50,574 nucleotides of DNA from assembly GCA_950054155.1 (NCBI GenBank), contig CATLOT010000027.1:1-50574 (forward strand), given 5' to 3'. Positions 8,656 through 11,596 of this stretch are shown piece by piece. The notes beneath the pieces were generated by a model. The model did not search any database, was not told the origin of the DNA, and saw only the letters and a program-made list of their open reading frames with translations. A program made the position numbers and the translations under genes. Each line of letters begins with the position of its first letter. The stretch's first letter is position 1. Origin of the DNA: an uncultured Bacteriovoracaceae bacterium. Lineage in GTDB: Bacteria > Bdellovibrionota > Bacteriovoracia > Bacteriovoracales > Bacteriovoracaceae.

Positions 8656-9666
8656 ATGCGTAGCGACTATACCTATACTGATAAGCAAAATCCACACGCC
8701 CTAAGAAGCCGTGAAATGCTCAAGAAGTATCCGCAAATTAAAGAGTGGATGAAGCCTTATCCGATGACAGCCTTTTGGATCACTCTTGTCACTCTCACCC
8801 AATTAGTCACGGCCTATGCCATCGTTCACTTTGACCTCAATGGCTGGTGGATCTTTGCCCTCTCCTACACCATTGGAGCCCTTGCCAGTCACGCTCTCTT
8901 TGTCCTCATTCATGAGGCCTGTCACGATGCCATCTTTAAGAAGAAAATTTGGAATAAGTGGTGGGGAATATTTTGTAATATTGGTCAGGGCTTTCCCTCG
9001 GCCATGAGCTTTCGCACCTTTCACCTTCTTCACCACTCCCACCTCAATGAATATGATAACGATGCCGATCTCGCCTTTAATTGGGAGGCCCGTCTCGTAA
9101 AGAATATTTGGTGGCGCAAGGTCTTGTGGTTTTTGGCCTTCTTTCTCATCGAGTCCATTCGTCCCTCACGCCTTAAAAAGGGGAAGACTTTTGAGATGTG
9201 GTCACTCATTAATATCGCCTTTATCATCGGGACAAATCTCGCCATCTATTTCTTCATCGGTCCTTGGGCCCTTGGCTATATTATTCTCTCAAGCCTCTTT
9301 AGTGTCGGCCTTCATCCAGTGGGCGCGCGCTGGGTGCAAGAGCATTACACCTACCAAGAAGGTCAAGAAACCTATGGCTACTATGGCATTCTCAATAAAA
9401 TTCAATTCAATATTGGCTATCACAATGAGCATCATGACTTCTATCGCGTGCCTTGGATTCATCTTCCTAAAATAAAAGCGCTAGCACCCGAGTATTACGA
9501 TAACCTATTCTCACATAAATCTTGGACACTTCTTCTTTTAGACTTTATCTTTAATCCTGAACGGGACCTCTACTTACGAATAGTGCGCAAGCGGGATAAC
9601 AAATCACGAAAGAATGATGAGCAATCCACACAAGGCGCTGGTTCCCAACCCAGTTTTGCTAAGTGA
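8656..9666 (+). CDS. DES1-like sphingolipid/fatty acid desaturase
   Basis: This is a 336-residue integral membrane di-iron desaturase. The three histidine boxes are HEACHD (86-91), HLLHHSH (123-129) and NEHHDF (257-262), separated by hydrophobic segments. The N-terminus (SREMLKKYPQIKEWMKP) and the segment QETYGYYG...GYHNEHHDF followed by PEYYDNL closely resemble eukaryotic dihydroceramide delta-4 desaturase (DES1/DEGS1), more so than ordinary acyl-lipid desaturases. A ceramide or sphingoid substrate is therefore likely. Bacteriovorax stolpii is known to contain sphingophosphonolipids, which supports this. It opens a coupled operon with DUF924, a lipid kinase and a hydrolase. Confidence 0.85.
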   Translation: MRSDYTYTDKQNPHALRSREMLKKYPQIKEWMKPYPMTAFWITLVTLTQLVTAYAIVHFDLNGWWIFALSYTIGALASHALFVLIHEACHDAIFKKKIWNKWWGIFCNIGQGFPSAMSFRTFHLLHHSHLNEYDNDADLAFNWEARLVKNIWWRKVLWFLAFFLIESIRPSRLKKGKTFEMWSLINIAFIIGTNLAIYFFIGPWALGYIILSSLFSVGLHPVGARWVQEHYTYQEGQETYGYYGILNKIQFNIGYHNEHHDFYRVPWIHLPKIKALAPEYYDNLFSHKSWTLLLLDFIFNPERDLYLRIVRKRDNKSRKNDEQSTQGAGSQPSFAK

Positions 9667-9672
9667 GATAAA

Positions 9673-10212
9673 ATGGAATTTAGAGAAGTACTGCGTTTTT
9701 GGTTTGAAGAACTCAAGCCTGAGCAATGGTTTAAGCAAGATGAAGAACTTGATAAGGCGATAAGCGATAAATTTGGGGCCATCCACCACCAGGCCACCCT
9801 CGGCGAACTTGAGGACTGGCGTGACTCCCCTCGTGGCCGCCTCGCTGAGATTCTCGTCATTGATCAATTTTCACGCAATATTTACCGAAATGACGCCAAA
9901 AGCTTCGCATGGGACTCGATGGCACTTTGCCTGTCGCAAGAGGCGATCAGAAGAGGCTGCCAAGAAGATCTTTCAAGCCCTAAAAAAGCCTTTCTTTATA
10001 TGCCATTTATGCATTCAGAATCTGCTCAAATCCACCGACAAGCTGTTGAACTTTATAGTGAACCAGGGTTGGAGTACAACCTTGAGTTTGAATACAAACA
10101 TAAAGAGATCATCGATCGCTTTGGCCGCTACCCCCATCGCAATGCCGTACTTGGGCGGGAGTCCACACCAGAAGAGATCGAGTTTCTTAAACAGGATGAC
10201 TCAAGCTTTTGA
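9673..10212 (+). CDS. DUF924 family protein
   Basis: This 179-residue protein matches DUF924 closely. The family pattern begins with VLRFWFEELKPEQWF, followed by LGELEDWRDSPRGRLAEILVIDQFSRNIYR, the AFLYMPFMHSES segment and HKEIIDRFGRYPHRN near the end. The family has a helical, TPR-like fold and no established biochemical role. It lies 6 bases after the desaturase and its stop overlaps the TTG start of the lipid kinase-like gene, so it belongs to the lipid operon by position. Confidence 0.9.
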   Translation: MEFREVLRFWFEELKPEQWFKQDEELDKAISDKFGAIHHQATLGELEDWRDSPRGRLAEILVIDQFSRNIYRNDAKSFAWDSMALCLSQEAIRRGCQEDLSSPKKAFLYMPFMHSESAQIHRQAVELYSEPGLEYNLEFEYKHKEIIDRFGRYPHRNAVLGRESTPEEIEFLKQDDSSF

Positions 10213-10865
10213 CTAACGACACCGCACCAACAGCAACCCGCAAAAGTCTTCAGATTCCCCGTAGACTCTTTCACTGTTCCATGGGACTTAGTGTGGGTCT
10301 CGTCTATCAATTTCTTCTAACCCACTCACGGGCCATTTATATTTTAGGCTTTTGTGCCTGTATCGTTTATATCCTCGAACAAGTGCGCGTAAATTATCCT
10401 GAGCTTAGCAGTAAAATTAAACTCATTAATAAGTATATCTTTCGCGCAGAAGAACAACTTAAAGAGAGCGCAGGGGTTCCCTACGTGATGGGCCTTCTTC
10501 TCACACTCATCAGTTTTCCAAAAGTGGTCGCCCTGGTCGCCATTTATACTCTGGCCGTGGCCGATCCCCTCTCTGCGATTATCGGCATTCGCTTTGGTAA
10601 GAAGAAAATCTCTGAAAATAAATCATTTGAAGGAAGTGGCGCTTTCTTTCTCTCTAGCTTTATTATCACTTTTCTCGTTTTCTTTTGGTGGAGTAGCTAC
10701 CTAGAAATAATGTTAGGCCCTCTTCTTCTTTTAAGTTTCCTTGTGGCCATTTGCACCACCCTCTTTGAACTCATCCCCTTAAGAATTGATGACAACCTCA
10801 CGATTCCTCTTTTCACGGCGGGAACAACGCTTCTTCTTTGTGGACTTCTAGGAGTGCCTCTTTAA
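10209..10865 (+). CDS. SEC59/DGK1/phytol-kinase-type CTP-dependent lipid kinase
   Basis: This 218-residue polytopic membrane protein has about six helices. Family marks are RRLFHCSMG near the N-terminus, a conserved Glu in YILEQVRVNYPE, ADPLSAIIGIRFGKKK, the NKSFEGSGAFFLSS segment and a late ELIPLRIDDNLTIPL. These are shared by dolichol kinase, phytol kinase and yeast CTP-dependent diacylglycerol kinase. The substrate is unknown; next to a DES1-like desaturase a sphingoid, ceramide or polyprenol alcohol is a reasonable inference. It begins with TTG overlapping the previous TGA, and its TAA overlaps the ATG of the next gene, so expression is coupled on both sides. Confidence 0.8.
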   Translation: MTNDTAPTATRKSLQIPRRLFHCSMGLSVGLVYQFLLTHSRAIYILGFCACIVYILEQVRVNYPELSSKIKLINKYIFRAEEQLKESAGVPYVMGLLLTLISFPKVVALVAIYTLAVADPLSAIIGIRFGKKKISENKSFEGSGAFFLSSFIITFLVFFWWSSYLEIMLGPLLLLSFLVAICTTLFELIPLRIDDNLTIPLFTAGTTLLLCGLLGVPL

Positions 10866-11596
10866 TGAAGTGCTTCGATTCAAAAGTTGAGGCCCAAGGT
10901 CTCTATCAATTTCAAGTCCACGCAAACCATGAATTAAAAGAGCGCCGCTTTGATAGGATCATCTTTCTTCTTCACGGCTATAGCGAAACAGGTTTTAAGA
11001 TCTATAAACGCCTTGGAGTGAAGCTTGATAAGCTCATCGGAAGTAACACGCTCATCCTCGCTCCCAATGCGCCCTTTCCCCTTCCGAAGGCCTTTCCCCT
11101 CAGCACCAATGAAGCGAAGACAAAGGAAGAGCTTCTTCAAGGTTTTGCCTGGTACTTCTATCATAGTGCCACAAATGAGTTTCTCATTGACTATAAAGTT
11201 CCTGCCCAAATGCTCACAAACTATATCACCGAAGTACTAGACCTTTACGCCACGGAGAAGGCACCTTTTCAAATCATAGGTTACTCTCAAGGGGGCTACC
11301 TTGGGCCCTTCTTGGCCCAAGAGCTCGTGAAGAGCTCCCTTGTGCCAGAGAAGGTCATTGCCCTTAATTGCTCTATCAGAAGTGACCTTTTAAACGAGGT
11401 CCCCTCCTATCCTCTTTATCAGTTACAAGGCACAGAAGATAAGATCATTGATACTAAGCTCGCCTTTGAGCGCTTTGAAAAATTAAAAGCGCGTGGCCTA
11501 AAGGCGGGAGAATTTCAATGGATCGAGGGCGTTGATCACTTCCTTAAAGGGGATTTGACAGAGGCGTGTCTTAAAATCGCCACCTCTCCTCAATAG
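10865..11596 (+). CDS. Alpha/beta hydrolase (phospholipase/carboxylesterase type)
   Basis: This is a 243-residue serine hydrolase. It shows the oxyanion segment FLLHGYSETG, the nucleophile elbow GYSQGG, an acid candidate in GTEDKIID, and the catalytic His in GVDHFLKGD, in the usual order for the carboxylesterase/phospholipase group. No signal peptide is seen. The ATG at 10865 overlaps the stop of the kinase-like gene (TAATG) and is preferred over an in-frame upstream codon at 10838. Position suggests a role in lipid turnover. Its end overlaps the convergent CorA-like gene by 26 bases. Confidence 0.8.
   Translation: MKCFDSKVEAQGLYQFQVHANHELKERRFDRIIFLLHGYSETGFKIYKRLGVKLDKLIGSNTLILAPNAPFPLPKAFPLSTNEAKTKEELLQGFAWYFYHSATNEFLIDYKVPAQMLTNYITEVLDLYATEKAPFQIIGYSQGGYLGPFLAQELVKSSLVPEKVIALNCSIRSDLLNEVPSYPLYQLQGTEDKIIDTKLAFERFEKLKARGLKAGEFQWIEGVDHFLKGDLTEACLKIATSPQ

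What the first reader, a model, noticed from the sequence alone, without database searches (positions are those of the whole stretch)
8656..11596. DES1-like desaturase in a coupled lipid operon
The desaturase resembles eukaryotic dihydroceramide delta-4 desaturase far more than bacterial acyl desaturases. It is followed with overlaps by DUF924, a SEC59/DGK1-type lipid kinase and an esterase. Bacteriovorax stolpii has sphingophosphonolipids, so this may be a bacterial ceramide modification pathway: desaturation, phosphorylation and deacylation. It would also suggest a job for DUF924.
Basis: partly seen in the sequence, partly recalled or inferred. Interest (0 to 1): 0.65.

Follow-up and report, generated by a model that had tools for sequence, protein, structure and literature searches.

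The report
Bacterial ceramide C4-modifying enzyme, DES family
A predatory-type bacterium carries a relative of the human enzyme that finishes ceramide, in a genome that also makes ceramide the bacterial way, and in several bacterial phyla this gene sits beside ceramide-making genes, so it very probably modifies bacterial sphingolipids; its three window neighbours are probably not part of that pathway.

Summary
The four ORFs are real. The first (8656-9666) belongs to the sphingolipid Delta4-desaturase/C4-hydroxylase (DES) family by sequence: it passes the Pfam Lipid_DES and FA_desaturase cut-offs, has all eight box histidines, is about 37% identical to human DEGS1, and is far from the genome's own acyl-lipid desaturase. 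Across 129 genomes of the family DES tracks SPT (41 of 43; p=5.5e-12). In Verrucomicrobiota, Alpha- and Gammaproteobacteria and one relative of this bacterium, DES lies among SPT/ceramide-synthase/Scs7 genes. So bacterial ceramide (or its long-chain base) is very probably the substrate. Whether the product is a 4-hydroxyl (slightly preferred) or a Delta4 double bond is undecided. The 'desaturation, phosphorylation, deacylation' operon is not supported: DUF924 is linked to DES only inside the genus, kinase and esterase occur in SPT-negative genomes, and neither DUF924 nor esterase tracks SPT. The B. stolpii phosphonate link does not carry over: no PEP mutase here. DES homologues are widespread in bacteria (559+ loci); no paper I found describes their function.

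The parts
8656..9666 (+). DES-family membrane di-iron enzyme (336 aa); histidine boxes H86EACH90, H123LLH126H127, H256NEH259H260
   Evidence: PF08557 40.3 bits and PF00487 97.8 bits; box histidines; 36.6% identity to human DEGS1 over 317 aa; tree
9673..10212 (+). DUF924 protein (179 aa), 6 nt downstream of DES; probably a bystander to the sphingolipid function
   Evidence: PF06041 218 bits; linked to DES only within the genus; no association with SPT, p=0.11
10209..10865 (+). Polytopic membrane protein (218 aa), possible CTP-dependent lipid/polyprenol kinase of SEC59/DGK1 type; 4-nt overlap with DUF924
   Evidence: No Pfam or NCBIfam hit; weak CTP_transf_1 and CdsA profile matches; close orthologues in SPT-negative genomes G015, G021, G024
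10865..11596 (+). Alpha/beta hydrolase (243 aa; FSH1/carboxylesterase-like, GYSQGG nucleophile motif); TAATG coupling to the kinase-like gene
   Evidence: PF03959 33.5 bits; no association with SPT, p=0.11

Best explanation
The gene at 8656-9666 encodes a membrane di-iron oxidase of the DES (DEGS1/DEGS2) family that acts on C4 of the sphingoid base of ceramide-type lipids. The lipids are made elsewhere in the same genome by SPT, a GNAT ceramide synthase (bCerS-like) and a CerR-like reductase, and their acyl chain is alpha-hydroxylated by an Scs7-type enzyme encoded beside that operon. Proposed order: SPT joins serine and an acyl thioester; bCerS N-acylates; CerR reduces the ketone; DES then inserts at C4 either a hydroxyl (phytoceramide; my slight preference, about 0.5) or a trans-Delta4 double bond (about 0.35), using O2 and an unidentified electron donor. 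Shown by sequence: DES family membership and catalytic histidines, presence of the other enzymes' families, strong co-occurrence with SPT, and linkage to SPT/bCerS/Scs7 genes in several phyla. Inferred: the substrate, the C4 position, the choice of product, and the order of steps. The DUF924, kinase-like and esterase genes downstream are most likely neighbours with other jobs.
For: Family: Lipid_DES and FA_desaturase above cut-off; eight box His conserved; 36.6% identity/206 bits to DEGS1 against 23%/37 bits to the own DesA-type desaturase L074; tree separates all DES from that outgroup. Pathway in genome: SPT at G000:C37:5835-7037, the only match to the AOS-type model TIGR01825, best PDB match Sphingobacterium SPT at 375 bits against 273 for the next family; GNAT and NAD-epimerase genes follow it; Scs7-type hydroxylase at 107 bits to yeast SCS7. 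Co-occurrence: DES in 43 of 129 family genomes, 41 with SPT, p=5.5e-12; 20 of 20 DES genera have SPT, p=6e-5; the two exceptions are 84% complete. Linkage: L112, L129, L149 (Verrucomicrobiota; DES-Scs7-SPT, then bCerS after a gap), L144 (DES-Scs7-SPT), L120 (SPT-bCerS-DES-Scs7), L132 and L146 (SPT-bCerS-DES), L147 (CerR-like, then SPT-DES), L182 (Bacteriovoracia; SPT-bCerS-Scs7-DES, the Scs7 gene on the other strand). In the all-neighbour clustering SPT and the Scs7-type gene recur across phyla, almost always on DES's strand. The family includes a human C4-hydroxylase, DES2 (PMC6920741).
Against: In this genome DES is not linked to the SPT operon (different contigs). No lipid data exist for this organism. 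The preference for hydroxylation leans on my memory of a B. stolpii lipid paper that is not held, and B. stolpii itself was not among the 80 named loci kept. A FA_desaturase-family protein in Caulobacter (CC_0202) is reported to hydroxylate the acyl chain, not the base (PMC11324152), so the reaction position cannot be read from the superfamily. bCerS and CerR labels rest on family plus gene order, not on comparison with the characterised proteins.
Confidence: 0.8

Rival explanations
1. One reading: a four-gene ceramide-modification operon (Delta4-desaturation, kinase phosphorylation, esterase deacylation, DUF924 accessory).
For: Tight spacing in this genome; DES-kinase-esterase adjacency also in G022 and G077, and looser linkage in G016, G039, G040, so the neighbourhood is older than the genus.
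Against: DUF924 joins only in the genus; in G022 it is on another contig. Esterase (OR 0.56, p=0.11) and DUF924 (p=0.11) do not track SPT; close kinase orthologues occur in SPT-negative G015, G021, G024. Flanking unrelated genes are equally syntenic in G022 and G077. None of the three was found near DES outside Bacteriovoracia-type genomes in the loci kept.
Confidence: 0.08
2. The enzyme acts on the sphingolipid but on the amide-linked acyl chain (alpha-hydroxylation or desaturation), like Caulobacter CC_0202.
For: Same superfamily as CC_0202, reported to hydroxylate the acyl residue.
Against: An Scs7-type acyl hydroxylase lies beside the SPT operon here and directly beside DES in Verrucomicrobiota and L120, so that step already has a candidate; the Lipid_DES N-terminal domain is present here, and PF08557 is absent from the Caulobacter control.
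Confidence: 0.1
3. Ordinary acyl-lipid desaturase that merely resembles DES.
For: FA_desaturase superfamily; DES is not in the SPT operon of this genome.
Against: Lipid_DES domain, large gap to the own acyl-lipid desaturase, SPT co-occurrence and operon linkage.
Confidence: 0.03

Closest known systems
Eukaryotic DES family (DEGS1 dihydroceramide Delta4-desaturase; DEGS2 C4-hydroxylase)
   Same: Both Pfam domains, all histidine boxes, HNEHHD third box, 36.6% identity to human DEGS1
   Different: Bacterial gene in the context of the bacterial ceramide pathway (GNAT bCerS, CerR); activity untested; first box HEACHD against HEIAHN
Bacterial ceramide pathway of Caulobacter (Spt, bCerS, CerR; PMC11087976)
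   Same: SPT followed by GNAT and NAD-epimerase genes in this genome
   Different: Caulobacter has no PF08557 protein (control); here a DES and an Scs7-type hydroxylase are added, and SPT is of Sphingobacterium rather than alphaproteobacterial type
Yeast Scs7 / animal FA2H ceramide fatty-acid alpha-hydroxylase
   Same: Companion gene next to the SPT operon, 107 bits to SCS7
   Different: No claim that DES does this step
Bacteriovorax stolpii sphingophosphonolipids (PMC6148460)
   Same: Same family of bacteria; SPT-based sphingolipids
   Different: No PEP mutase in this genome, so no phosphonate head group expected

Membership tests
DES (sphingolipid Delta4-desaturase / C4-hydroxylase) protein family | N-terminal Lipid_DES domain (PF08557) above gathering score | tested here: met
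   40.3 bits against 23
DES (sphingolipid Delta4-desaturase / C4-hydroxylase) protein family | FA_desaturase domain with three His boxes HxxxH, HxxHH, HxxHH | tested here: met
   97.8 bits; all eight His present
DES (sphingolipid Delta4-desaturase / C4-hydroxylase) protein family | Groups with DEGS1-type proteins and not with acyl-lipid desaturases | tested here: met
   only one eukaryotic row (recalled sequence, checked by Pfam) and one outgroup row
DES (sphingolipid Delta4-desaturase / C4-hydroxylase) protein family | Organism has the genes to make sphingoid bases (SPT pathway) | tested here: met
   SPT and following genes; co-occurrence
DES (sphingolipid Delta4-desaturase / C4-hydroxylase) protein family | Delta4-desaturase or C4-hydroxylase activity on (dihydro)ceramide | not testable with these tools
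   Needs enzyme assay or lipidomics
   DUF924 p=0.11, esterase p=0.11 with OR 0.56, kinase orthologues in SPT-negative genomes
SEC59/DGK1-type CTP-dependent lipid kinase (10209-10865) | Recognisable CTP_transf/SEC59 profile | tested here: inconclusive
Sphingophosphonolipid pathway as in B. stolpii | PEP mutase for the C-P bond | tested here: not met
   PF13714 absent from the 99.9% complete genome

The most novel reading that the evidence does not exclude
A widespread bacterial branch of the DES family provides the C4 tailoring step of bacterial ceramides (bacterial phytoceramide or Delta4-ceramide), encoded together with SPT, bCerS and Scs7-type genes in several phyla. Its bacterial diversity, including one Bacteriovoracaceae protein 50% identical to human DEGS1, makes a bacterial source for, or gene exchange with, the eukaryotic enzymes possible.
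Probability: 0.6. Interest if true: 0.65.

Novelty: new member of a known kind. Interest (0 to 1): 0.5.

Why it matters
Core bacterial ceramide enzymes (Spt, bCerS, CerR) were identified only recently; which enzymes decorate the sphingoid base in bacteria is, as far as the papers I could search show, open. Sphingosine (Delta4) and phytosphingosine (4-OH) are what distinguish most eukaryotic from simple bacterial ceramides, so a bacterial DES linked to ceramide operons gives a directly testable candidate and bears on how the eukaryotic pathway was assembled.

Tried and rejected
Four-gene ceramide pathway: rejected on co-occurrence and synteny. DUF924 function from context: not supported. Phosphonate head group: PEP mutase absent. 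A redox partner encoded next to DES: the neighbours scanned were aldo/keto reductase, amidoligase-like, aldolase, peptidase, CDP-alcohol phosphatidyltransferase and alcohol dehydrogenase proteins. Viral contigs as a source of eukaryote-type DES rows: 96 pattern hits, none a relative. No PDB chain matches DES convincingly by sequence. Papers on B. stolpii lipid species, on bacterial ceramide synthesis and on B. stolpii SPT (JASMS 2007; PMC8891067; PMC1951810) are not held. No searched paper describes function for bacterial DES homologues; absence from this library is not proof of novelty.

Full report
Observation. The window is a whole contig (G000:C27) of a 3.52-Mb, 99.9% complete genome in 61 contigs. 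Its closest relatives in the genome collection are titled Bacteriovoracaceae, Bacteriovoracia, Bacteriovoracales or Halobacteriovoraceae MAGs. Four same-strand ORFs occupy 8656-11596. DES and DUF924 are 6 nt apart; DUF924/kinase overlap by 4 nt and kinase/esterase by 1 nt. DES passes PF08557 and PF00487; DUF924 passes PF06041; the esterase passes FSH1; the kinase-like protein passes nothing.

Is it really a DES? The eight box histidines are present. Identity to human DEGS1 is 36.6% over 317 residues, against 23% to the genome's own DesA-type desaturase. The DEGS1 sequence was written from memory; it scored 74 bits for Lipid_DES and 91 for FA_desaturase, as the real one should. A 71-row tree separates all DES rows from the acyl-desaturase outgroup. 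It places the window protein with other Bacteriovoracia, and pairs DEGS1 with the G014 protein, SH-aLRT 95. The single outgroup branch is very long, so rooting inside DES is not reliable. The best 80 come from Bdellovibrionota, Bacteroidota, Verrucomicrobiota, Pseudomonadota, Myxococcota and others. So the protein is a member of a widespread bacterial branch, not an isolated oddity.

Does the organism make sphingolipids? One gene matches the AOS-type acyltransferase model, at G000:C37:5835-7037. Its best PDB match is Sphingobacterium SPT at 375 bits, against 273 for the next family and 236 for cysteate fatty acyltransferase. The top NCBIfam model is serine palmitoyltransferase, 484 bits, below its strict 640 cut-off. 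It is followed by a GNAT protein and, overlapping it, a NAD-epimerase, the gene types expected for bCerS and CerR, enzymes known from Caulobacter (PMC11087976). On the opposite strand lie a PAP2 protein and an FA_hydroxylase whose best PDB match is yeast SCS7, 107 bits. PEP mutase is absent, so the phosphonate head group of B. stolpii is not expected.

Link between DES and sphingolipids. In 129 genomes of the family, 43 have DES and 71 have an SPT at 45% identity or more; 41 have both. The two DES-only genomes are both 84% complete (Fisher p=5.5e-12; by genus 20/20, p=6e-5; without the own genus p=1.7e-11). Relatedness inflates genome-level p-values; the genus-level value is the safer one. Thirty genomes have SPT without DES, as expected for an optional tailoring enzyme. 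Gene order gives independent support. DES-Scs7-SPT, with bCerS further downstream, occurs in Verrucomicrobiota (L112, L129, L149; L144 has DES-Scs7-SPT). SPT-bCerS-DES, with or without Scs7, occurs in Beijerinckiaceae and Methylobacteriaceae (L120, L132, L146), SPT-DES in a gammaproteobacterium (L147), and SPT-bCerS-Scs7-DES in a Bacteriovoracaceae relative (L182). When all genes near DES were clustered without preselection, SPT and the Scs7-type gene recurred across phyla, almost always on DES's strand, with part of the bCerS set also recovered; most other recurrent clusters are local synteny within one lineage.

The neighbours in the window. DES-DUF924-kinase-esterase is confined to the genus. 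DES-kinase-esterase without DUF924 is found in G022 and G077, and looser linkage in G016, G039 and G040; but flanking unrelated genes are also collinear in G022 and G077, so this may be ordinary synteny. Esterase and DUF924 do not follow SPT (p=0.11 each; esterase odds ratio 0.56). Close kinase orthologues occur in SPT-negative G015, G021 and G024. DUF924 shows a weak association with DES (p=0.013 without the own genus), which I do not interpret further.

Which reaction? The family includes Delta4-desaturases and the C4-hydroxylase DES2/DEGS2 (PMC6920741, PMC11765627). From memory, B. stolpii sphingophosphonolipids carry mostly iso-C17 phytosphingosine and alpha-hydroxy fatty acids (Jayasimhulu 2007; paper not held). 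If close relatives share that chemistry, the Scs7-type gene explains the alpha-hydroxyl and DES is the natural candidate for the 4-hydroxyl. That tips me slightly to hydroxylase (about 0.5 against 0.35 for desaturase; the rest other positions). Two further PF04116 proteins in this genome could in principle be C4-hydroxylases instead.

Verdict. The operon-pathway story and the proposed job for DUF924 are not supported.

Noticed in passing
L027:7160-8212 (G014:C75): A Bacteriovoracaceae genome encodes a DES 49.7% identical to human DEGS1 (recalled sequence), far closer than the other bacterial DES proteins; possible gene exchange with eukaryotes or a relic of the shared ancestor.
   Followed up: partly
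L028:1175-2179 (G004): DES of a same-genus genome has HxxHN in place of HxxHH in box 2 (H127N), unique among 95 aligned rows apart from its duplicate record L082.
   Followed up: no
L026:5835-12959 (G000:C37), L183:10924-16001, L184:521-6105: Conserved cluster SPT, GNAT, epimerase, then PAP2 and Scs7-type hydroxylase on the other strand and a further small protein (START-like by eye, no Pfam hit), in several Bacteriovoracaceae.
   Followed up: partly
L088:5001-5906; L112:7294-8049: CDP-alcohol phosphatidyltransferase between bCerS-like and DES genes (L088) and after bCerS (L112): candidate sphingolipid head-group enzyme.
   Followed up: no
L083, L084, L085, L188, L189, L191 (next to DES): An aldo/keto reductase gene lies beside DES on the same strand in six Bacteriovoracia loci; role unknown.
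   Followed up: partly
   Followed up: partly
L112:42-1865: MMPL-family transporter directly upstream of the DES-Scs7-SPT cluster in a Verrucomicrobiota genome: candidate sphingolipid exporter.
   Followed up: no
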